Virus record (IMG/VR): IMGVR_UViG_3300034683_000530
Span: 1-47,082 of that record
DNA length: 47,082 bases
DNA from: a virus
Direction: 5' to 3' (one strand)
Part shown: positions 4,878-27,262 of the stretch, in pieces
Position numbering within the stretch: position 1 is the stretch's first letter
Layout of the letters: each line of letters begins with the position of its first letter
Notes under the pieces: model-generated
Seen by the model: the letters and a program-made list of their open reading frames with translations, nothing else
The model's database searches: none
Told to the model about the DNA's origin: nothing
Program-made: the position numbers and the translations under genes

Positions 4878-5312
4878 ATGCTTGAGATTAAAGTAACAAT
4901 CGACTTGTCAAAAAATGCAGAGCAAATTTTGACCGACTTATTGACGCTGATACAGGGTCAAAAGTACGAAACTCCGAAAGCGGAAACTCCGAAAGCGGAA
5001 ACTCCGAAAGCGGAAACTCCGAAAGCGGAAACTCCGAAAGCGGAAACTCCGAAAGTAGAAAAACCCGTTGCACCTAAGGCAGAAGCTCCAAAAACGGGAA
5101 GCTCTGTTGCGCCTAAGGCAGAAATGCCGAAAGCGGAAAGCCCTAAACTTACCGTAGAGGCTATACGAGAATTAATGCACGCAAAGGTCAACAATTACGA
5201 TAACCGTACAAAACTGAAAAATAAACTATCGGAACTCGGTGCGGGAAACGTTACGACCCTTGACCCTAAGTATTATCAAGAATTTTATGACTACATGATA
5301 ACTTTACCGTAA
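4878..5312 (+). CDS. rrp5-like phage replication-module protein with ETPKA repeats
   Basis: 144 residues. A short N-terminal beta segment (1-28) is followed by a Pro/Lys/Glu-rich linker with six near-perfect pentapeptides (ETPKA five times, then ETPKV; residues about 31-60), then further PKAE-type units. The C-terminal domain (about 93-144, LTVEAIRELMHAKV to LDPKYYQEFYDYMITLP) resembles the small helical domain of Firmicutes phage proteins often labelled rRNA biogenesis protein rrp5, which likewise precede DUF2800 and DUF2815 genes. The biochemical role is unknown; I infer a helper of the recombination/replication proteins. Its stop overlaps the next start. Confidence 0.6.
   Translation: MLEIKVTIDLSKNAEQILTDLLTLIQGQKYETPKAETPKAETPKAETPKAETPKAETPKVEKPVAPKAEAPKTGSSVAPKAEMPKAESPKLTVEAIRELMHAKVNNYDNRTKLKNKLSELGAGNVTTLDPKYYQEFYDYMITLP
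4968..5057 (+). repeat. Six tandem 15-bp repeats inside a gene (ETPKA linker)
   Basis: Six copies of gaaactccgaaagcg lie in phase with the reading frame (starts 4968, 4983, 4998, 5013, 5028, 5043). Five are identical and the last differs at two bases. In-frame multiples of 15 allow copy-number change without frameshift. Confidence 0.95.
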
Positions 5313-6490
5313 TGGAGAAGCACGGTGAACGTACGCATGCGCTTTTAGCGGCGTCTAAAAGCGATAGGTGGATTAACTGCCCTCCCTCCGCACGATTAGA
5401 GGAAGCGGTACCTAACGACTCGCAAACACCTTATGCTCGTGAAGGCGAATTGGCACACGAACTCGCACAACTCATGATTGAGTACGAGATTATCGGAAGT
5501 ATTTCCTCCGCCGACTACGATGCTCGTTTCGAGCAGATAGTCAACGACCCCGCTTTTGACGAGGAAATGTTAGACGAAGTACCGAAATATGTAGATTTTT
5601 GCGACGCGGAATTTACGCGCATGAAGCAACTCACGCCCGACGCCATGATGCTTGTGGAGCAAAAAGTCGATTTTCACAGGTTTGTGCCCGAGGGTTTCGG
5701 AACAGACGACTGTATTATTATCGCGAACGATTTGATGTACGTTATCGATTTAAAGTATGGTAAGGGGGTACTCGTTTCTGCCGAAGAGAACAGTCAGCTA
5801 AAATTATATGCCATAGGCGCGCTCGAGCAGTTCGGTTTATTGTATAATATTAATACGGTAAGACTTGTCATTGCTCAACCGAGACGCGATAATTTTTCGG
5901 TATTCGATATAAGTGTAGCAGACTTGTACGAATGGGCGGAAAATACTTTAGTTGCTGCCGCGCAAATGGCATGGGAAGGCTCGGGCAAACAAAAAGCGGG
6001 CGATTGGTGCAAATTTTGTAAAGTTAAGGCCCAATGTAAGACTTTAGCGGAAGAGCGCCTAAAAGTAACGAAACACGATTTTGCAGACCCCTATTTATTA
6101 ACGGACGACGAGATTGCCGAGATATTGAAATCGTCGTTCCTTATTAAGGAATGGTTAAACGGTTTGGAAGCCTATGCTTTAAAAGCCGCTTTGGAAGGCA
6201 AAAAGTGGCCCGGGTATAAACTCGTAGCGGGGCCGAGCAGACGTAAATGGCTCGACGAAAATAAAGTCGTAGAAACGTTACTTACACAACCCGATTTATC
6301 GGAGGAGGATATTTTCGTGCAAAAGCTTAACGGCATTACGATTATCGAGAAAAAGCTCGGTAAAAAGCGTTTTAACGAATTACTTGCCGATTTAATCGTT
6401 AAGCCCGAAGGTGCACCGACTCTTGCCGAAGAGACAGATAAAAGACCGGAATACGGCATTACGCAAGCACAAATAGATTTTACTAACTAA
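5312..6490 (+). CDS. DUF2800 family, Fe-S PD-(D/E)XK nuclease (Cas4/RecB-like)
   Basis: 392 residues. The nuclease motif is visible: GTDD (130-133) followed by VIDLKYGKG (144-152), giving the D...DxK pattern, with QLKLYA (162-167) as the helical QxxxY-like motif. Four cysteines are placed as in Cas4/AddB iron-sulphur nucleases: Cys23 (WINCPPS), then Cys233, Cys236 and Cys242 (WCKFCKVKAQC). It probably processes DNA ends as an exonuclease for replication or recombination. The next gene encodes a DUF2815 ssDNA-binding protein, its usual partner in many siphophages. The start overlaps the previous stop (TAATG), so it is in one operon. Confidence 0.85.
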   Translation: MEKHGERTHALLAASKSDRWINCPPSARLEEAVPNDSQTPYAREGELAHELAQLMIEYEIIGSISSADYDARFEQIVNDPAFDEEMLDEVPKYVDFCDAEFTRMKQLTPDAMMLVEQKVDFHRFVPEGFGTDDCIIIANDLMYVIDLKYGKGVLVSAEENSQLKLYAIGALEQFGLLYNINTVRLVIAQPRRDNFSVFDISVADLYEWAENTLVAAAQMAWEGSGKQKAGDWCKFCKVKAQCKTLAEERLKVTKHDFADPYLLTDDEIAEILKSSFLIKEWLNGLEAYALKAALEGKKWPGYKLVAGPSRRKWLDENKVVETLLTQPDLSEEDIFVQKLNGITIIEKKLGKKRFNELLADLIVKPEGAPTLAEETDKRPEYGITQAQIDFTN

Positions 6491-6505: not shown

Positions 6506-7051
6506 ATGACTACAGCAAATTCAACAAAAGTAGTAACGGGAAAAGTACGCTTTTCTTATGCGCATGTATTTACTCCGCATGCTATGGAAGATGGCGGAGA
6601 CGCAAAGTACAATGTAAGTATTATAATCGATAAAAAAGATACCGCTACTTTGGCGCGTATCGAAGCGGCCATTAATGCCGCAATCGAAGTGGGCAAAAAT
6701 AAATTGGCCGATAAATCGGGTAGAGTTAACAAGGCAACTTTAAAATTGCCGTTACGCGACGGCGATATTGACCGTCCCGACGACCCTGCTTACGCCGGTA
6801 AGATGTTCATAAACGCAAGCAGTACGCGTAAACCCGGTATTATCGACCAAGATAAACTCGAATTAACCTCGCCCGACGAGTTTTATTCGGGATGTTACGG
6901 TAGAGCGTCTATCAATTTTTACGCTTTCAATGTCAATGGTAATAAGGGCGTTGCCGCAGGACTGCAAAATCTTCAGAAACTCGAAGACGGCGAGCGGTTA
7001 GACGGTTTCGCCTCGGCAGAAGAGGATTTTTCTGACGACGAATTGTTTTAG
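6506..7051 (+). CDS. DUF2815 ssDNA-binding (OB-fold) protein
   Basis: 181 residues. The pattern KVRFSYAHVFTP, then AKYNVSIIIDKKD, then a conserved beta core ending INFYAFNVNGNKGVAAGLQNLQ, matches DUF2815 proteins, which are phage single-stranded-DNA-binding proteins. The C-terminus is an acidic tail ending DDELF, as in SSB-type proteins that recruit partners through a terminal acidic, aromatic peptide. It would coat ssDNA during phage replication and cooperate with the DUF2800 nuclease just upstream. The 355 bases after it hold a tRNA-like element and no large gene. Confidence 0.82.
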   Translation: MTTANSTKVVTGKVRFSYAHVFTPHAMEDGGDAKYNVSIIIDKKDTATLARIEAAINAAIEVGKNKLADKSGRVNKATLKLPLRDGDIDRPDDPAYAGKMFINASSTRKPGIIDQDKLELTSPDEFYSGCYGRASINFYAFNVNGNKGVAAGLQNLQKLEDGERLDGFASAEEDFSDDELF

Positions 7052-18613: not shown

Positions 18614-18892
18614 TTATACCGGTTTAAGTATTTCTATTTTGCCGTAATACGGATAAATGCTACCGTCGCGATATATTTCGTAACGGAGCGTTTTGTCTTT
18701 TGCCCTGTAGAGGGTTAAAGTCGAAGGATTGTAGTTATTGCCTAAACTATGACCCGCTACATTTACGTAATTGTACGTAGACGGACAATGCCGTTTAGGC
18801 GTACCTTTATACAGCTTTGCCGGAACAACGAGGTTCTTACCTTCCATAAATATTTCCAGCCAAATATCGATATACGGTTTTTGCCTTTTCAT
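18614..18892 (-). CDS. Hypothetical protein, family C copy 1 (AKLYKG motif)
   Basis: 92 residues from the ATG at 18892, which sits just after the upstream stop; a longer in-frame start at 18916 would overlap that gene. It contains VPAKLYKGTPKRHCPSTYNYV and, later, LTLYRAKDKTLRYEIYRDGS and YYGKIEIL. The same plan is found at 19617-19877, so the two are paralogues split by two unrelated genes. Beta-rich and basic. The function is unknown. Confidence 0.6.
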   Translation of the reverse strand: MKRQKPYIDIWLEIFMEGKNLVVPAKLYKGTPKRHCPSTYNYVNVAGHSLGNNYNPSTLTLYRAKDKTLRYEIYRDGSIYPYYGKIEILKPV

Positions 18893-18893
18893 A

Positions 18894-19199
18894 TTATGCG
18901 TTGTTTTTAAGAACAATCATTTTTTTAGGTACATAGCAAAAATCGAAATGTTTGCATTGATGCGGCGTATCCGATAATTCGAATAATTTACATCCTTCGC
19001 AATTCTCGTTCTTGTCCGTTTTTAGACAAAACTCTTTAGTAGCTCCGCAAAAGAAATACTCGGATTTCAAATCCTTTTCGACCGACCAAATAATAAGTTC
19101 TTTCAGTCCTTCTTTTTTCATTTTCGAAATAAAATGCGACTTCGGGTATAACATAGGGTCGTCTAAGTTATCGCTCGCATAAAGATTTTTTGTTTTCAT
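18894..19199 (-). CDS. Hypothetical Cys/His-rich, probably zinc-binding protein
   Basis: 101 residues. Six cysteines (51, 58, 67, 70, 82, 88) and His80 and His84 lie in the C-terminal half, including a CxxC pair (CEGC, 67-70), which suggests one or two bound zinc ions. The N-terminal half is helical and charged. No family is recognised. One base separates it from the upstream gene. Confidence 0.55.
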   Translation of the reverse strand: MKTKNLYASDNLDDPMLYPKSHFISKMKKEGLKELIIWSVEKDLKSEYFFCGATKEFCLKTDKNENCEGCKLFELSDTPHQCKHFDFCYVPKKMIVLKNNA

Positions 19200-19200
19200 A

Positions 19201-19620
19201 TCATTCGTGTTTTGTTAAGTTATTGATAGACTTGATAATTAGCTTTGCCGTAACTTCGTTGAATTTTTCGACTCTGACGGATATGCTGTTCGTCAGTGCG
19301 CCTACCGCGATATAAATATCGACTTTCGCGCATTTGTCAATCCTGTAAAACTCGCCGAATATCGGCTCCGGAATAACCTTAATAATCAGGTTGTTCTTAA
19401 GTACTTTTCTTACGCTATTTTTATTGTAGTTAGCGTAAGATATGTCGGTGTCGGCATATAACGCATACCCGCTTTCGAACGTTTTTAAGCGCATACGATA
19501 GTCTATAATCGTTCCGTTCGCAAGCGCTTTGTCGTATATCGCTTTATAGTAGTCGCAAATATCTATCATGGCGACTTTGCACATTTCCTGTGCTTTAATA
19601 TCGGTGTCGATGTAGTTCAT
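19201..19620 (-). CDS. Hypothetical protein
   Basis: 139 residues: an N-terminal helical part (DIKAQEMCKVAMIDICDYYKAIYDKAL) and a beta-rich C-terminal part with repeated Ile/Val strands (NLIIKVIPEPIFG, VDIYIAVGALTNSISVRVEKF). No motif is recognised. It overlaps the family C gene upstream by 4 bases. Confidence 0.55.
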   Translation of the reverse strand: MNYIDTDIKAQEMCKVAMIDICDYYKAIYDKALANGTIIDYRMRLKTFESGYALYADTDISYANYNKNSVRKVLKNNLIIKVIPEPIFGEFYRIDKCAKVDIYIAVGALTNSISVRVEKFNEVTAKLIIKSINNLTKHE

Positions 19621-19877
19621 AGTTGCGTATCTATTAGTTCCAATTTACCGTAGTAAACGCCGAGGCCGTCGATGTAAGAAGTGCTGTACCTCAATGCGCC
19701 GCGCGGCGTTTTATAAATCGTTATCCGGTTAAATTCGAAAGGCAATAACCCGTAACGGCAATACGTACCTACTTTTTTGTAGGTCAAGGGCTGATGCTTT
19801 TTAGGCTTGCCCTTGTATAACTTCGCTTTAACGACTTTGCCGTTAATGAGAATGTCTATTACAATGTACGTTTCCAT
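19617..19877 (-). CDS. Hypothetical protein, family C copy 2 (AKLYKG motif)
   Basis: 86 residues. VKAKLYKGKPKKHQPLTYKKVG aligns with the same region of the gene at 18614-18892, and the ends RITIYKTPRGALRYSTSYIDG and VYYGKLELI also match. It is beta-rich and basic. Duplicate genes retained in a compact phage operon suggest related roles with different targets, but no activity is known. Confidence 0.6.
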   Translation of the reverse strand: METYIVIDILINGKVVKAKLYKGKPKKHQPLTYKKVGTYCRYGLLPFEFNRITIYKTPRGALRYSTSYIDGLGVYYGKLELIDTQL

Positions 19878-19889
19878 ATTCGTATAAGT

Positions 19890-20198
19890 TTATAGTAAAT
19901 CTCGCATTAGCTCCGAGTTACACGTAATCATTTCGAATGCCTCGTTTCGGCCTTTAGCGGTTAATCCGGGTATCGTAATTACGTACTCGAGGGCTTTTCT
20001 TACATAATTCTTTTCCGATACTATTTTTACGTAAGTAGCCTTTTTGGTAGCCAAAACTACCATCAGTACCGGTTCGCATTTGAACTGCGCATAATAGTGC
20101 TTGTACAAGTCTTCCAAATGCTCGAGTACAAGCTCCAACAGCATGGCTTCATCAGTAGCCAAGCCGTCGTGAAATTCGATAGTCTCTTGTAGCGTCAT
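19890..20198 (-). CDS. Hypothetical protein, family B copy 1 (MTLQE)
   Basis: 102 residues from the ATG at 20198. A longer frame reaches 20240 but runs into the upstream gene, and the downstream ATG gives the start MTLQETIEFHDGLATDEA that matches its neighbour. The protein shares with 20203-20511 the blocks MTLQE.I.FHD.LA.DE, FKCEPVLMV and a C-terminal helix ending DLL. It is a small alpha/beta protein, acidic, of unknown function. Confidence 0.6.
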   Translation of the reverse strand: MTLQETIEFHDGLATDEAMLLELVLEHLEDLYKHYYAQFKCEPVLMVVLATKKATYVKIVSEKNYVRKALEYVITIPGLTAKGRNEAFEMITCNSELMRDLL

Positions 20199-20202
20199 AG
20201 TC

Positions 20203-20511
20203 TTACAATAAATTTTTAACAAAAGCAGAATTGAAAGCAATTATACCTGCTATTTCCTTACGCTCGTCTTCGGATATATCGGGTATCGTGTTTACGAACT
20301 CGTCTATCTTTTCGACAAGTTTATTCGCGGGTACGATTTTTGCGTAAAGCTCGGTATTGACCATAGCCGCTACCATCAGTACCGGCTCGCAACCGAACTG
20401 CTTTTTGTAATGTTCGCGTAATTCGTCTAAATGCTCTACTATGGGAGCAATTGCCATTGTTTCGTCCACGGCCAAATCGTCGTGGAAGTCGATAATTTCT
20501 TGTAGTGTCAT
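20203..20511 (-). CDS. Hypothetical protein, family B copy 2 (MTLQE)
   Basis: 102 residues, the same length as its downstream paralogue at 19890-20198 and 4 bases from it. The conserved blocks are MTLQEIIDFHDDLAVDE (1-17), FGCEPVLMVAAM (about 39-50) and the last helix ending KNLL. It follows a 107-base gap with an operator-like repeat and a strong hairpin, so this pair and the genes beyond may form their own transcript. The function is unknown. Confidence 0.6.
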   Translation of the reverse strand: MTLQEIIDFHDDLAVDETMAIAPIVEHLDELREHYKKQFGCEPVLMVAAMVNTELYAKIVPANKLVEKIDEFVNTIPDISEDERKEIAGIIAFNSAFVKNLL

Positions 20512-20618: not shown

Positions 20619-20756
20619 TTATTTACGTCGCTTCTTAGTACCGCACGCTTTTGCACGGTTATATTCGACCTGTTTCCGACTCGGATACCCTAAGGCTTCC
20701 AATAAGTCGTTCGGGTCGTGAATAATCTTATAGCTCCGTTCTTTTTTCGCTTTCAT
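20619..20756 (-). CDS. Small basic hypothetical protein (45 residues)
   Basis: 45 residues, starting MKAKKERSYKIIHDPNDLLE and ending CGTKKRRK, with ATG at 20754-20756 and TAA at 20619-20621. Its start overlaps the TGA of the last array gene (ATGA), which argues strongly for real, coupled translation. The sequence is basic at both ends and has one helix in the middle (NDLLEALGYPSRKQVEYNRA). DNA or RNA contact is possible. No family is recognised. Confidence 0.6.
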   Translation of the reverse strand: MKAKKERSYKIIHDPNDLLEALGYPSRKQVEYNRAKACGTKKRRK

Positions 20757-21115
20757 TTCGGACAGTCTTTAAAGAAGCTATTGATTTTGTCCTCAAACTC
20801 GGCAAACCGGTCTTTTAACCGTTCCGATTGTAACAACCCGGCCATTAATTCCGGATTAACTTCGCTTTTGTCGTAATCGTAAAACTCTATGAGCGATTTA
20901 CTTTTTGTCAATGTAGGGTCATGCTGCGACAAATATCGTATTGCCTCGTCTCGGTCGGTTACCTCGACGTCAAATCCGCCATTGGCTAACAGCATTCCGT
21001 AAATCGTACCGAAAGGGCGTTTTTGGTCGATGTCGTCAATATCGATATACTTCAGTATATCTACCTCTGTACTAAGCCCTTTTAAAAAATTCTCGATTTC
21101 TTGTTTTGTGCGCAT
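20753..21115 (-). CDS. Tandem array family A, copy 1 (distal)
   Basis: 120 residues; the most divergent and longest member, with an extra C-terminal CPK. It shares the family plan: start MRTKQEIENFLKGL, YIDIDDIDQKRPF (about 23-35), GGFDVEV, a central HDP (about 65-67), LLQSE and the end DKINSFFKD. The family is helical and acidic, with no motif that I know. The gene is 6 bases from the preceding copy and overlaps the next gene by 4. Confidence 0.75.
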   Translation of the reverse strand: MRTKQEIENFLKGLSTEVDILKYIDIDDIDQKRPFGTIYGMLLANGGFDVEVTDRDEAIRYLSQHDPTLTKSKSLIEFYDYDKSEVNPELMAGLLQSERLKDRFAEFEDKINSFFKDCPK

Positions 21116-21121
21116 AATGAT

Positions 21122-21475
21122 TTAATCTTTAAAGAAGTTATTAATTTTAGGTCGCAACGAACAGAACGCGCGGCGCGTATTTTCCGAAAGTAATAACCGT
21201 GCCAGCAACTCGGCGTCGATGTCCTCTTCAGTATATCCGCAAGCTACCGCCAACGATACGCTTTTATTCCATGACGGGTCATGCTCGCCCAAGTATTTTA
21301 CTGCGTCTTCGTAGTGCGCCACGTCTATATCGAAACCCCCGCTTTCGATTATCATGTCGTATATAGACTCGAAGGGGTGTTTCTGGTCGATACGCCATAT
21401 ACTGACGTACATAAGCACATCGACCGGCGTATCGAGCCCCTCTAAAAATTCTTTAATTTCCTGTTTGGTTCGCAT
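21122..21475 (-). CDS. Tandem array family A, copy 2
   Basis: 117 residues: MRTKQEIKEFLEGLD, IDQKHPFESIYDM, GGFDIDV, YLGEHDPSW, ACGYTEEDI, LARLLLSENTRRAF, and end PKINNFFKD. It differs from siblings by WRID in place of DxID near residue 27 and by RPKI in the last helix. It keeps the strong end-sequence conservation with a changed centre. The function is unknown; tight spacing (5-6 bases on either side) indicates one mRNA. Confidence 0.75.
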   Translation of the reverse strand: MRTKQEIKEFLEGLDTPVDVLMYVSIWRIDQKHPFESIYDMIIESGGFDIDVAHYEDAVKYLGEHDPSWNKSVSLAVACGYTEEDIDAELLARLLLSENTRRAFCSLRPKINNFFKD

Positions 21476-21480
21476 AGCGG

Positions 21481-21834
21481 TCAGTCTTTAAAGAAGTTAT
21501 CTATCTTGTCTTGCAACTCGCAAAATTCCTTTCGCGTATTTTCGGAAAGCAGTAAGCTCGCGAGTTGTTCGCTGTTGATGTCGGTTATGCTTAAGCCGAG
21601 CTCTGCCGCCAAAGTCAGGCTCTTGATTAAGCACGGGTCGTGTTCGCTCAAATATTCCATCGCGTTATCGCAATAGATTATCTCCATAATAAATCCGTCG
21701 TTCTCGAGCACCATTTCGTACATCGACTCGAAAGGTCGATTAGGGTCTATACGGTCTATTTCAATGCACTCGAGTACGCTTTCCGGTAAATTTAATTCGC
21801 GTAAGAATTGTTCGGTTTCTTGTTTAGTTCTCAT
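21481..21834 (-). CDS. Tandem array family A, copy 3
   Basis: 117 residues: MRTKQETEQFLREL, IEIDRIDPNRPFESMYEM, DGFIMEI, YLSEHDPCL, LASLLLSENTRKEF, and end QDKIDNFFKD. The block LLLSENTR is shared exactly with copy 2, and the last ten residues with copies 5 and 6, suggesting exchange of end segments between copies. It is acidic and mostly helical. The gene lies 2 bases from the preceding copy. Confidence 0.75.
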   Translation of the reverse strand: MRTKQETEQFLRELNLPESVLECIEIDRIDPNRPFESMYEMVLENDGFIMEIIYCDNAMEYLSEHDPCLIKSLTLAAELGLSITDINSEQLASLLLSENTRKEFCELQDKIDNFFKD

Positions 21835-21836
21835 AT

Positions 21837-22190
21837 CTATTTGTTTTTAAAGAAGTTATTGATTTCGTCTCTTAACGTCAAGAATTGACGCCGCATTTTA
21901 ACGGAGTACAATAATCTTGCCAACAATACGGGCGTCATATCTTTTGCCACATATCCGCAAGCCAAAGCAACGGCCATGCTCTCAACCCTAAACGGGTCGT
22001 GTTTGTCTAAATAGCGTAACGCCTCTTCGGTATTTACGTGAAGCTCGAAGCCTCTGTTCCTGTCAATCATATCGTACATCGCCTCGGCAGGGCGGATTTC
22101 GGGTATACGGTCTATTTCCACGAGCTCCAGTATGTCGAGGTCGGTGTCGAGTTTACTTAAAAATTTCTCTATTTCTCGTTTTGTGCGCAT
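21837..22190 (-). CDS. Tandem array family A, copy 4
   Basis: 117 residues: MRTKREIEKFLSKLD, VEIDRIPEIRPAEAMYDM, RGFELHV, YLDKHDPFRVESM, ALACGYVAKDM, LARLLYSVKMRRQFLTLRDEINNFFKNK. It is the member with the most changes at sites conserved elsewhere (RPAEA for PFES, LYSVK for LLSE) and the most basic C-terminus. It is still clearly homologous through length, both ends and the HDP motif. Confidence 0.75.
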   Translation of the reverse strand: MRTKREIEKFLSKLDTDLDILELVEIDRIPEIRPAEAMYDMIDRNRGFELHVNTEEALRYLDKHDPFRVESMAVALACGYVAKDMTPVLLARLLYSVKMRRQFLTLRDEINNFFKNK

Positions 22191-22196
22191 AACGTT

Positions 22197-22550
22197 TTAG
22201 TTTTTAAAGAAGTTGTCTATTTTGTCTTTTAAAGTTAGGAATTGTTGCCTTGTTCTCTCCGATAGCAATAAACTTGCCGCTACGGTAACACTTAGCTTGT
22301 CGTCGGTGTATCCGCAAGACGCCGCAAGTCTCTTGCTCTCGATACCCTGCGGGTCGTATGCGATTAGATACTTTACCGCATTATCGTAGTACTCTATTTT
22401 GAGCGTAAAACCGTTCGCGTCTTCAATCATTCTATAAATGGAATCGAACGGGCATCTCGGGTCGATATTGTCTATATCGATGTAGTCCAAAAAATCGATC
22501 GCCGCGTCGAGACTCCGTAAAAAGTCCTCTATTTCCTGTTTAGTTTTCAT
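22197..22550 (-). CDS. Tandem array family A, copy 5
   Basis: 117 residues. The N-terminus (MKTKQEIEDFLRSLDAAID to DIDNIDP, 1-31) and the C-terminus (ASLLLSERTRQQF, then KDKIDNFFKN) are almost identical, in DNA as well as protein, to copy 6, while the centre (about 32-85) is much more changed. One of the only two GATC sites that I find in the window is here (22497-22500), in the part shared with copy 6. This pattern fits a recent duplication or gene conversion of the ends. Confidence 0.78.
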   Translation of the reverse strand: MKTKQEIEDFLRSLDAAIDFLDYIDIDNIDPRCPFDSIYRMIEDANGFTLKIEYYDNAVKYLIAYDPQGIESKRLAASCGYTDDKLSVTVAASLLLSERTRQQFLTLKDKIDNFFKN

Positions 22551-22553
22551 ACG

Positions 22554-22907
22554 TCAGTCTTTAAAGAAGTTATCTATCTTGTCTTTTAAAGTTAGGAACT
22601 GTTGTCTTACTCGCTCAGATAATAATAAACTCGCCAAAGTAGTAAGAGTCGCGTTATCGGCGTTATACCCGTGGTCAAGAGCAAGTTTTTTACTTTCGGT
22701 TAGACTCGGGTCAAATATCGATAAATATATTGCAGCGGTATCTGCGTACAATACTTCATAATTAAACCCGCTATTATCGTTTAGCTGTTTATAAACGGAC
22801 TCGAACGGATGTTCGGGGTCGATACTGTCTATATCGATATAGTCCAAAAAATCGATCGCCGCGTCGAGACTCCGTAAGAAGCCCTCTATTTCCTGTTTAG
22901 TTTTCAT
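22554..22907 (-). CDS. Tandem array family A, copy 6 (first in the operon order)
   Basis: 117 residues: MKTKQEIEGFLRSLDAAID, DIDSIDPEHPFESVYKQL, SGFNYEV, IFDPSLTESKKLAL, LASLLLSERVRQQF, KDKIDNFFKD. Being first of the six it is nearest to the promoter side. It shares with copy 5 the start and end DNA and the GATC at 22854-22857. The two flanks of the array gene boundary (acgtcagtctttaaa) are also repeated, so the duplicated unit reaches beyond the coding part. Confidence 0.78.
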   Translation of the reverse strand: MKTKQEIEGFLRSLDAAIDFLDYIDIDSIDPEHPFESVYKQLNDNSGFNYEVLYADTAAIYLSIFDPSLTESKKLALDHGYNADNATLTTLASLLLSERVRQQFLTLKDKIDNFFKD

Positions 22908-22910
22908 ACG

Positions 22911-23156
22911 TCAGTCTTTAAAATAAACGGTATATGCCGTATCGTTTCCTATAGGAAGGTTAAGAAACACGTCGTCGCAATCCTCAATATCGGACTCAAT
23001 GACCCCGAGTTTCTTAATGTCCTTCACAAGGTTTCCCCACGCAGGGTCGCCCTTATAAAAATACTTACCTGCACATCCGCAACGGCAATGCCTATCGCGA
23101 CCGTAGTAAATCTTACATACGCGTGAAAAATCGATTTTACTCGTATCTATTCTCAT
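22911..23156 (-). CDS. Hypothetical protein with CRCGC cysteine motif
   Basis: 81 residues. The N-terminal segment VCKIYYGRDRHCRCGCAGKYF holds Cys14, Cys24, Cys26 and Cys28, a compact motif seen in small phage proteins, probably a metal site or a structural knuckle. The C-terminal half is acidic and ends TVYFKD. Three bases separate it from the first array copy, so it is co-transcribed with the array. It follows the terminator-like hairpin at 23161-23206. Confidence 0.6.
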   Translation of the reverse strand: MRIDTSKIDFSRVCKIYYGRDRHCRCGCAGKYFYKGDPAWGNLVKDIKKLGVIESDIEDCDDVFLNLPIGNDTAYTVYFKD

Positions 23157-23160
23157 AATC

Positions 23161-23206
23161 GTAAATAATAAAGTCGTCCTGCACCGTATACACGGCGCAA
23201 GACGAC
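23161..23206 (-). terminator. Leftward rho-independent terminator or attenuator
   Basis: Bases 23173-23206 form, on the leftward strand, a 14-bp stem with two G-U wobbles (on the other strand these would be A-C mismatches), loop of 6, followed by a T-rich tail (TTTATTATTT). The wobbles show that the RNA is leftward. It lies between the gene at 23213-23611 and the array operon, so it may limit or regulate expression of the array. Confidence 0.65.
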
Positions 23207-23212
23207 AGTCCG

Positions 23213-23611
23213 TTACTGTTCATACCATTCCTTATAAGCCTCTAAAGCTTTCATAATCAACTCGTTTACCCTCGTTTTAACGGAGGGCTGAAGCGGTTGC
23301 GTAAACAGTGCTTGTCCCTGACCCGGGCCTTCTTTACAAGGATATGCAAAAGCATATTTATCCGAGTCTATTCTGTAGCCAAAATAGCTCTTTTCCGGAT
23401 TAAACCGCTCGCAAATAAACTTGTACCCCGACCGTCCGCTATAATTATAACGGAGAAACATTGCCGGTGTACCGTCGCCGTTGTCCTTAATTACGAAAGA
23501 ACTGTTCTCGAGAAACCTGTCGAGCCATCTCTGTGTCCCGAATAGTTTTTCGCTGTTTACTTCGATTTCTACCTCGAGTCCGTTTTTCGAAACGAATTTT
23601 GTCACTTCCAT
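23213..23611 (-). CDS. Hypothetical protein, upstream of the array
   Basis: 132 residues: beta-rich N-terminus (VTKFVSKNGLEVEIEVNSEKLFG), a central basic/aromatic part (FLRYNYSGRSGYKFICERF) and a helical C-terminal end (VNELIMKALEAYKEWYEQ). No family is recognised. It is the first gene behind the 23-bp operator-like repeats and the leftward promoter candidate, so it may be an early-expressed leader gene of the leftward set. Start at 23611 is the only ATG that fits. Confidence 0.55.
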   Translation of the reverse strand: MEVTKFVSKNGLEVEIEVNSEKLFGTQRWLDRFLENSSFVIKDNGDGTPAMFLRYNYSGRSGYKFICERFNPEKSYFGYRIDSDKYAFAYPCKEGPGQGQALFTQPLQPSVKTRVNELIMKALEAYKEWYEQ

Positions 23612-23718
23612 TGTTTTAGTTTTTAATTATGCCTACTCTATTGACGACTTTTCGGCTTCCGTCGTTGTACTTATTCGAAGTTCCAAACTTCACAAGTCTT
23701 TATTTTCAAGACTTTAGA

Positions 23719-23807
23719 ATAAGTTTCTTGGTATAGTACGACCAAGTTTCTTGGTAGGATATGACCAAGTTTCTTGGTACAATACGACCAAGTTTTCCGA
23801 TATTGTT
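23719..23807. repeat. Three and a half tandem 23-bp repeats with CCAAG-ttt-CTTGG palindromes
   Basis: The unit aagtttcttggtatagtacg plus acc repeats at 23721, 23744 and 23767, then a partial copy at 23790. Joined copies create the palindrome CCAAGtttCTTGG at 23742-23754 and 23765-23777, and a half site at each end. The 23-bp period puts the sites about two helix turns apart. It lies in the leader of the leftward operon and looks like an operator array for a dimeric regulator. Confidence 0.75.
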
Positions 23808-24854: not shown

Positions 24855-24877
24855 ATTACAAATTGTTAAAGAACGTT

Positions 24878-24942
24878 ATTGGTAGCAAAATACTACCAAT
24901 ATCCAATTGGACTGTAGTCCTTAATTGAACAGTATAAAGATA
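24878..24942 (-). promoter_or_regulatory. Leftward promoter candidate and leader hairpin of the 263-residue gene
   Basis: On the leftward strand 24942-24935 reads TATCTTTA, the same -7 variant as three rightward promoters, with TTAA 37 bases ahead (at 24979). The leader then contains a perfect 8-bp hairpin, ATTGGTAG/CTACCAAT (24878-24885 and 24893-24900) with a 7-base loop, some 23 bases before the ATG. It could be a regulatory or stability element. Confidence 0.45.
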
Positions 24943-25039
24943 GAAAAATAAATTGAATTACGATACTAAAGGAAGTTAAAGTTTGACTTCAAAAATAGGT
25001 CGAAAAGTTAAAAAATATTAAGGAATAACCCCCTATACA

Positions 25040-25260
25040 GAACTTATTTTATAAGTCGTATTTATAATTGTAACTACACTTATAAATCGAATTTATAACG
25101 ACGTACGAAAGTCTCGTTAAATATAGAACCTAATTTATAAATTAAATTTATAAGTTAGGTCAACATATAAGTCAAATCTATAATTATAAGTTATAAGTCA
25201 AATCTATAATTAAGGACAACATATAAGTCAAATTTATAACTTATAAGATATAAGTTATAT
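25040..25260. repeat. AT repeat block with ATAAGTCAAATTTATAA-like units
   Basis: Units such as ATAAGTCAAATCTATAATTA (twice) and ATAAGTCAAATTTATAAC recur with short spacers, along with TTATAA palindromes. The block contains hardly any G/C, so it would melt easily. It is typical of an AT-rich unwinding element, though a decayed repeat is equally possible. Confidence 0.6.
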
Positions 25261-25498
25261 CTATATTGTGACTACCCTAATAAGTACTACTTATTAGGTT
25301 TAGTTAACAAATGTTTTTAGTTAATAGTTATAGGACTGCTAAAATTAACATTCGTTAACTGAAGAGGTTTTAAGGAAGGTAAGAAAATAAGTAGTTAATT
25401 TGCAAATATTTAGCTAATAAAATTAAAAGAGGATAGGTTAATTGCTGAATTAGGTTAAAGGAGATTAAGGACTTTTGCAATTAGGATTTTAACTATAA

Positions 25499-25546
25499 TT
25501 TACATTTGTAAATTTACATTTGTTAATTTTAGTTTACATTTGTAAA
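25499..25546. repeat. Three TTTACATTTGTAAA palindromic sites
   Basis: TTTACATTTGTAAA at 25499-25512 and 25533-25546, and TTTACATTTGTTAA (one base changed) at 25513-25526. The 14-bp site is a palindrome with a TT centre, fit for a dimeric DNA-binding protein. Confidence 0.75.
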
Positions 25547-25573
25547 TAGGTCATTCTCCTTCAATTTTAGTAC

Positions 25574-25850
25574 TTATTCACATTCGTTGACACTTATTAA
25601 CAAATTGACTTATGTTCCTTTATTTAACACTTGTTAACACTTATTAACAACTCCACCTATCAACCTTTTTTTACAATTCTTTGCACTTATTAACAGAATA
25701 GGTTATTAGACATTTCTTACAATTCTTTGCACTTGTTAACAGAATAGATTATTAGGTTTGGTTCACAAATCTTTGAACTTATTAGCAGTTCCCCCTATTA
25801 GGTTTGGTTCACAATTCTTGACAAGTTTTAAGAAGTGACTCTAATTTAGA
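25574..25850. repeat. DnaA-box match and 46-bp iteron-like repeats
   Basis: TTATTCACA at 25574-25582 fits the bacterial DnaA box TTATNCACA. Variants TTATTAACA or TTGTTAACA follow at 25594, 25631, 25641, 25687 and 25733. From 25673 a 46-bp unit (acaattctttgcacttatta, then acagaatagg...) repeats at 25719 and 25765 with a partial fourth at 25811. This is a plausible initiator-binding cluster. Confidence 0.65.
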
Positions 25851-26079
25851 TTTTAACATATTTTTGAAATTAGGGGGTAGGTTGATGGAAGGGGGGGCCC
25901 TTTATAATATATATAGAGCAAGGCGCGTCTCGAAAAATAAAATTTGAGCCAAATCTATATCCCCAACAATTCTACCTAAACCCGGTTTTTGTACGGTAAT
26001 AAGCCATTGGCTCCCATAAAAAATTATAGGGGCCATAAGCCTTTTAGCGGATACGGGGGAAAATTGGTACAAATTTCAT

Positions 26080-26559
26080 AAACAATAAATGGAATTATTG
26101 TTTAAGACTAACTGCTTGACACCCAGCTCGATAGAGGCCTTTTAAACAATAAACGAGAAAAAACGGACTAAACTTTTTTTCGTCAATTGTAAATGAATGC
26201 TAAAAAAATAATTTGGGACTTTATCCTAAAAATATTTCGAATTTTAAACAATAAACGAAATTATTGTTTAAGACTAACTGCCTGATACACAACTCGATAG
26301 AGGCCTTTTAAACAATAAACGAGAAAAAACGGACTAAACTTTTTTTCGTCAATCGCAAATGAAAGCTAAAATCAGACCCGAAAAAAGCCTATAAAAAAAT
26401 TTAAGCCTTTATCCCAAAAATATCTCAAATTTTAAACAATAAACGAAATTATTGTTTAAGACTAACTGTCTGGTATACAAGCCAATAGGAGCCTTTTAAA
26501 CAATAAACGAGAAAAAACGGACTAAACTTTTTTTCGTCAATTGCAAATGAAAGCTAAAA
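26080..26559. repeat. Three imperfect 126-bp direct repeats
   Basis: Copies at 26080-26205, 26246-26371 and 26434-26559 each hold AAACAATAA, TTATTGTTT, AAGACTAACTG, a GAGGCC- or GGAGCC-like part, a second AAACAATAA, and CGAGAAAAAACGGACTAAAC followed by a T-run and CGTCAA. A related leader with AAAAATAT precedes copies 2 and 3 and a fourth, partial unit near 26585-26620. Confidence 0.85.
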
Positions 26560-26782
26560 TCAAGTTGAAAATAAAATTGACTGTTTTACTCAAAAATATT
26601 TTGAGTTTTAAACAATAAAATGGACTCAAATCGCAAAAATTCGCAAATTTAACATTTTAACTCTTTGATTTTCAATGAATAAACAAAATAAACACAACCT
26701 TTAGTTTATTGTTTAAGAAAATTTATATTGATTTTCAAGTAGTTAGGGGGCCTTTTAAACAATAAACAATAATTTTAATACA

Positions 26783-26851
26783 AACTTTCCATTGGAAAAT
26801 GAGCTTAAACGCTAAAATTTTAGCATTTAAGCTCATTTCGCCCAGAAAGTT
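26783..26851. repeat. 42-bp near-perfect palindrome with an outer stem (cruciform candidate)
   Basis: Bases 26797-26838 (AAATGAGCTTAAA, then GCTAAAATTTTAGC in the centre, then TTTAAGCTCATTT) are palindromic apart from one C/A position. Outside it AACTTTC (26783-26789) pairs with GAAAGTT (26845-26851). No T-run follows. It lies among the AAACAATAA sites. Confidence 0.85.
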
Positions 26852-27191
26852 ATATAGATTTTATTGTTTATTGTTTAAAATGCCAGTTTTTAGGCCTGTA
26901 ACCCCCTCATTTTTAATAGGTTATTCCATAAACAATCATTGTTTATTATTGTTTAAGATTTGTGCCCGCTAAGCCGCTAACCACTTTATTTACAGACAAT
27001 TAAGCTCTTTCGAAGGTCAAAAATTATTGTTTATGAAGGCTCCGAAACTCAAACAAAGAATTGTATCGCGCTGATTTTTAGCTCGTTACATTTTTACTCC
27101 GTTTTTTAGCACTTTTTGTTCTCCCGCAAGCCACTTTTTTAAGGGGAGTTCCCATAAAAATGAAAATACAGGATAACCTTTAGGTAAATTT

Positions 27192-27236
27192 TTAGCTTAA
27201 AATATTTCCTCGTTTAAATTTTAATTTTTATATTTG
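27192..27236 (+). promoter_or_regulatory. Promoter of the terminase/structural operon (shared phage promoter, copy 4)
   Basis: TTAG at 27192, CTTAAAATATTTCC next (compare TGTAAAATATTTTC of copy 1), TTTC at 27205-27208 and the full -7 box TATATTTG at 27229-27236, exactly 37 bases after TTAG. The terminase start is 27263, giving a leader of about 20 bases. Confidence 0.65.
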
Positions 27237-27262
27237 TATTCGTAACGCTATATTCTCTTTAT

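What the first reader, a model, noticed from the sequence alone, without database searches (positions are those of the whole stretch)
20753..22907. Head-to-tail array of six paralogous genes of unknown function
Six genes of 117-120 codons lie with 2-6 bases between them and clearly share one plan: start (M[RK]TKxE), DxID-like motif, PF, GF, a central DP, LLxSE and end KIxNFFK. Keeping six copies in a compact phage genome implies selection for variety or dosage. They are acidic and helical. Anti-defence proteins, host-takeover factors or subunits of one hetero-oligomer are possible; none is shown by sequence.
Basis: partly seen in the sequence, partly recalled or inferred. Interest (0 to 1): 0.82.

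Follow-up and report, generated by a model that had tools for sequence, protein, structure and literature searches.

The report
Six diverged copies of phage protein
A virus of Bacteroidota bacteria carries six diverged but intact side-by-side copies of a small helical protein that dozens of other phages carry once, which looks like gene amplification followed by specialisation, probably to handle several host targets, although the target is unknown.

Summary
Six ORFs of 117-120 codons lie head to tail on the minus strand (20753-22907), 2-6 bases apart, 42-65% identical. They match no Pfam, PHROGs, NCBIfam, PADLOC or PDB family. Scans built from their invariant residues showed that they belong to an unnamed phage family. 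Forty-five of 45 other viral contigs searched whole carry exactly one copy; only this phage and a near-identical contig carry six. The six form one clade (100/99), so the array arose by tandem duplication in this lineage. Every copy is under purifying selection (pooled pN/pS 0.09, 95% CI 0.04-0.17), so none is decaying. AlphaFold2 gives a confident all-helical fold (pLDDT 94). It matches two unnamed predicted phage proteins and no solved structure. Loop motifs almost invariant in single-copy members (IYY, SL, NSE) are lost in several of the copies, while core positions are kept. Copies 1 and 2 are mosaic. This favours variety over dosage. Best explanation: an early accessory effector, single-copy elsewhere, amplified and then specialised, probably against several host targets such as defence variants. 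The target is inferred, not shown.

The parts
22554..22907 (-). array gene 1 (g1, first transcribed), 117 aa
   Evidence: ORF; HMM match to family; pN/pS 0.17 vs G001
22197..22550 (-). array gene 2 (g2), 117 aa; N-terminal 40 codons nearly the same as g1 (dS 0.21), middle very diverged (dS 2.9)
21837..22190 (-). array gene 3 (g3), 117 aa; one-residue deletion in the 49-57 loop, pI 6.1
21481..21834 (-). array gene 4 (g4), 117 aa; the copy closest to single-copy relatives (keeps 90% of conserved sites)
21122..21475 (-). array gene 5 (g5), 117 aa; modelled, pLDDT 94
20753..21115 (-). array gene 6 (g6, last), 120 aa
20619..20756 (-). 45-aa basic ORF (pI 10.1) whose ATG overlaps the stop of g6 (ATGA); the same amino-acid sequence in G001
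22911..23156 (-). 81-aa gene 3 nt upstream of g1; its stop region (TTTAAAGACTGACGTATG) is identical to the g1/g2 junction
23213..23611 (-). 132-aa first gene of the operon; homologues lie in contig L217, which also holds a single-copy family member
23630..23665 (-). DUF805b RNA (RF02914) in the leader just upstream of the operon's first gene
   Evidence: 46.2 bits against a gathering score of 35.6

Best explanation
The array is a lineage-specific tandem expansion of one small, all-helical, early accessory phage protein that other phages carry once. SHOWN by sequence: one ancestral gene duplicated in place to six; the copies then diverged, mainly in loop motifs that are almost fixed in single-copy relatives, and exchanged segments (g1/g2); each copy is now kept by purifying selection. 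INFERRED: the protein is a cytosolic protein-binding effector made early in infection from one operon, and the copies were kept because each acts on a different host target or target variant, most plausibly host defence or host-takeover targets. Amplification probably first gave dosage and was then fixed by specialisation.
For: Single clade 100/99; one copy in 45 of 45 other contigs against six here and in the sister contig. Pooled pN/pS 0.09, CI 0.04-0.17, 12 nonsynonymous against 33 synonymous changes. Near-invariant family motifs are lost in many copies while core positions stay: I53 kept in 2 of 6, Y55 in 2, S88 in 1, against 6 of 6 for A58, Y61, L62, D66, A92, L94, F104. g1/g2 are mosaic: N-terminal dS 0.21, middle dS 2.9. 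The fold is confident and helical. Relatives lie in accessory regions next to VRR-NUC, HTH, phosphoesterase, BT4734-like and HNH genes. Family members are fused to other small modules, as accessory effectors often are. Precedent: T4 overcomes toxIN by tandem amplification of the 85-aa inhibitor gene tifA (PMC9391042).
Against: No experimental or database evidence names a target, and no neighbour is a known anti-defence gene. pN/pS between strains shows constraint, not current positive selection. Loss of conserved motifs could partly reflect relaxed constraint after duplication. Six diverged subunits of one complex would give much of the same pattern.
Confidence: 0.42

Rival explanations
1. The six are subunits of one hetero-oligomer that replaced an ancestral homo-oligomer, like ring or coat proteins whose paralogues became obligate partners.
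For: The fixed set of six is in the same order in both strains, all copies are conserved, and they have one operon-like spacing that would give similar amounts.
Against: Relatives manage with one copy. No oligomer is predicted or tested here. Diverged loops are expected under either model.
Confidence: 0.22
2. Dosage: several copies simply give more of the same activity.
For: Tandem amplification is a known phage route to higher dose (tifA in T4, PMC9391042). g1/g2 share nearly identical ends.
Against: Copies are 42-65% identical, and the family's near-invariant motifs differ between copies. A pure dose effect should keep copies alike.
Confidence: 0.1
3. Specialised copies whose targets are not defence: host-takeover factors acting on several host enzymes, or regulators of phage genes.
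For: Early-region setting with HTH and nuclease genes; one operon with an RNA leader.
Against: No DNA-binding fold or enzyme motif was recognised in any library.
Confidence: 0.24
4. Neutral duplication-prone region: the copies are accidents that are drifting.
For: The same region holds two other paralogue pairs, and the sister contig has an extra cassette.
Against: All six frames are open in both strains and pN/pS is 0.09 (binomial p about 1e-14).
Confidence: 0.02

Closest known systems
BFVD predicted structures A0A516LMC3 (118 aa) and A0A6J5MZ91 (176 aa), uncharacterised viral proteins
   Same: Same fold by Foldseek from two independent models: E 9e-7 and 4e-6 with g5, 7e-7 and 2e-7 with L136; 27-40% identity
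   Different: No function is assigned to either; copy number in their genomes was not checked
T4 dmd-tifA segmental amplification (PMC9391042)
   Same: Tandem amplification of a small phage inhibitor gene in response to a host defence
   Different: The T4 copies are identical, recent and laboratory-selected; here the copies are old, diverged and individually conserved. No sequence relation was tested or claimed.
Zinc-ribbon expansion in Bacillus phage G, about 35 copies (PMC7824862)
   Same: Lineage-specific expansion of a small protein in one phage
   Different: Different fold; jumbo phage; not described there as one tandem operon
DUF7222 (PF23864)
   Same: Weak profile match to one family member (E 0.019); a DUF7222 protein is Foldseek rank 3 for g5 (E 0.9)
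   Different: Both are below any acceptance threshold; not a member on this evidence

Membership tests
Unnamed phage single-copy helical family (defined here) | Family HMM match over the full length | tested here: met
   All six match the 36-sequence HMM, which was built with the six included, at E 1e-40 to 1e-48; the HMM of the six alone finds outside members at E 1e-13 to 1e-42
Unnamed phage single-copy helical family (defined here) | Loop motif IIYY and NSE near invariant | tested here: not met
   Kept fully only in g4-like form; 1-3 of 6 copies keep positions 53, 54, 55, 87, 88, 89. This is divergence within the clade, not exclusion from it
Unnamed phage single-copy helical family (defined here) | One copy per phage | tested here: not met
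   Six here against one in 45 of 45 other contigs; contigs may be fragments
DUF7222 (PF23864) | Score at or above the Pfam cut-off of 27 bits | tested here: not met
   Best 15.6 bits, in one relative; none in the six
Known anti-phage defence families (PADLOC) | Significant profile match | tested here: not met
   Best E 0.011 in one of six, Cas8g, not credible. PADLOC holds defence systems, not inhibitors, so this does not bear on anti-defence
Counter-defence gene amplified in tandem (tifA type) | Tandem copies of a small phage gene | tested here: met
Counter-defence gene amplified in tandem (tifA type) | Inhibits a host defence | not testable with these tools
   Needs expression or plaquing assays

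The most novel reading that the evidence does not exclude
A fixed array of specialised copies of one counter-defence scaffold: six versions of an undescribed inhibitor fold, recombining among themselves, each blocking a different defence or defence variant of Bacteroidota hosts.
Probability: 0.22. Interest if true: 0.78.

Novelty: new variant of a known kind. Interest (0 to 1): 0.55.

Why it matters
It gives a protein family that is absent from Pfam and PHROGs yet present in at least dozens of uncultured phage contigs, and one phage in which natural amplification has already made and tested six functional variants. Comparing the six with single-copy relatives points to the loops (53-55, 68-69, 87-89) that probably touch the target. 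It is a natural end-state of the gene-amplification route that laboratory phages take against defences.

Tried and rejected
Profile libraries gave nothing above noise for the six or for ten relatives. tblastn against annotated phages with members and consensus sequences gave only chance hits (the two loci inspected were inside long unrelated proteins). The low-complexity filter may have hidden matches. Phages related by portal protein (79 contigs besides the sister) lack the family. The neighbouring pair 19890/20203 is not a distant relative of the six (hhalign probability 0.3%). DUF7222 was considered and not accepted (one search had no positive control). Bacterial genomes: five pattern hits, one real (a Methylococcaceae MAG contig).

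Full report
OBSERVATION. Six ORFs of 117-120 codons lie on the minus strand at 20753-22907. Gaps are 2-6 bases and pairwise identity is 42-65% with almost no gaps. In transcription order I call them g1 (22554-22907) to g6 (20753-21115). The record is a 47,082-base virus contig with terminase, portal, tape measure, family A DNA polymerase and VapE-like primase/helicase. Its portal is closest to phages of Bacteroidota hosts.

HOW UNUSUAL. In 161 loci from related phages and from phages of the same protein family (2.0 Mb, 3067 genes, the window included) I found five runs of adjacent paralogues: four pairs and this run of six.

WHAT FAMILY. No library names it: Pfam, PHROGs, NCBIfam, PADLOC and PDB sequences give nothing credible. 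Two DNA patterns built from residues invariant in the six (positions 58-104 and 66-115) were run over 2.9 million viral contigs. Nearly all stretches found encode real relatives by the HMM of the six, E 1e-13 to 1e-42. A wider scan gave 80 loci. The consensus core is EIIYYxxAxxYLxENDPSLxESLxIAxExGYxxxNLNSELLASLLAS...F...I..FF. Ten relatives also match no Pfam or PHROGs family.

COPY NUMBER. In 45 other contigs searched whole, each has exactly one copy; the sister contig G001 has six. Many of these contigs are incomplete, so 'one' is a lower bound, but no second copy was seen in any. In the pattern scan too, only the sister contig gave several matches in one stretch. Seventy-nine contigs of phages related by portal protein lack the family. 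The sister contig shares 99.8% identity over the structural genes and 97% over the array region.

ORIGIN. In a 78-row tree the six form one clade with support 100/99, and g1 and g2 are sisters. The array therefore arose by duplication in this lineage, not by collecting genes from different phages. The g1/g2 pair is mosaic: synonymous distance is 0.21 in the first 40 codons and about 2.9 in the middle. The gene upstream of g1 ends in the same TTTAAAGACTGACGTATG junction that joins g1 to g2, which suggests a recombination point; this is inference.

SELECTION. Between the window and G001 the six genes have 33 synonymous and 12 nonsynonymous changes. pN/pS is 0.09 pooled (bootstrap 95% CI 0.04-0.17) and 0.03 to 0.17 per copy. 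No copy has a stop or frameshift. This is two strains only, but the departure from neutrality is strong (binomial p about 1e-14).

WHERE THE COPIES DIFFER. At sites conserved in at least 80% of 48 dereplicated single-copy members, most core positions (14, 24, 29, 38, 42, 48, 52, 58, 61, 62, 66, 72, 75, 92, 94, 95, 97, 104, 111) are kept in all six. Positions 53, 54, 55, 68, 69, 73, 87, 88, 89 and 93 are kept in only one to three. g4 keeps 90% of conserved sites, the others 72-82%; the single-copy median is 97.5%. Caution: the second scan selected for NSE-like motifs, so conservation at 87-89 is partly built in. The first two scans did not use 53-55 or 87-89, and the members listed from them almost all keep both. 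In the model these positions fall in the loops around 45-54 and 66-69 and at the start of helix 88-105. I had no coordinates, so a shared surface is a guess.

FOLD. AlphaFold2 on g5 with the six sequences gives pLDDT 94, pTM 0.83, all helices. A relative, L136, with 18 sequences gives the same helix order at pLDDT 89. Foldseek finds the same two uncharacterised viral proteins from both models and nothing in the PDB. The PDB search was done with g5 only.

CONTEXT ELSEWHERE. Relatives sit among small accessory genes. Recurring nearby families include VRR-NUC (sub-threshold), winged HTH_39, Cro/C1 HTH, calcineurin-like phosphoesterase, BT4734-like and HNH. A Kyano_Gp96 relative (PF23790) is the next gene in L159, and its cluster is at +1 in seven contigs. 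Some family members are fused to zinc-finger-like segments (by eye). Others are fused to a domain that in L159 is a separate gene three places downstream, a hint of shared function.

CONTEXT HERE. Upstream on the same strand lie an 81-aa gene, a 132-aa gene and a DUF805b RNA leader. The 132-aa gene has homologues in contig L217, which also holds a family member. A 45-aa basic ORF starts within the stop of g6, with the same amino-acid sequence in G001. G001 has an extra cassette with a second DUF805b leader and a third copy of the 19890/20203 family. The region is thus prone to gain and duplication.

MECHANISM. Shown: in-place expansion, diversification, constraint. Inferred: cytosolic early effectors with different binding loops. 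The closest precedent is T4 amplifying tifA to beat toxIN (PMC9391042), where the authors also suggest that homologues are tuned to particular toxins. I rate specialised effectors with defence-like targets highest (0.42), non-defence targets 0.24, hetero-oligomer 0.22, dosage 0.10 and drift 0.02. The exact target is unknown, and the split between these is judgement.

NOVELTY. The protein family appears undescribed in the libraries held, and the fixed, diverged six-copy array is unusual among the phages sampled. Phage gene expansion as such is known (phage G zinc ribbons, PMC7824862; crAss-like gene 74 duplications, PMC7886860).

Noticed in passing
window 23630-23665 (-), G001 (L097) 5959-5994 and 6949-6984 (-): DUF805b RNA (RF02914) leads the operon; the sister contig has two copies, each just upstream of a gene cassette.
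   Followed up: partly
window 23721-23795; L097 about 6060-6200: 23-bp tandem repeats upstream of the DUF805b leader: three copies here, about seven of a different sequence in front of one leader in the sister contig; each unit can form a short hairpin.
   Followed up: no
L097 6130-6930: Extra two-gene cassette in the sister contig, flanked by copies of window 23610-23799, carrying a third member of the 19890/20203 family.
   Followed up: partly
window 19890-20511 and 18614-19877: Two further paralogue families in the same region: the adjacent pair 19890/20203 (46% identity) and 18614/19617 (36%).
   Followed up: partly
window 24855-27262: About 2.4 kb without a convincing gene, rich in AT direct repeats (179-nt unit in three copies, 46- and 53-nt units) between divergent operons; possibly a replication origin.
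   Followed up: no
window 23173-23206 (-): Strong 15-pair hairpin followed by a T-rich stretch between the 132-aa gene and the rest of the operon; possible attenuator.
   Followed up: no
window 4968-5055: Perfect 15-bp tandem repeat, 5.9 copies, inside an ORF, giving an ETPKA repeat.
   Followed up: no
L152, L156, L130 against L159 4073-4384: A domain fused to the C-terminus of the family protein in three contigs is a separate gene three places downstream in another contig.
   Followed up: partly
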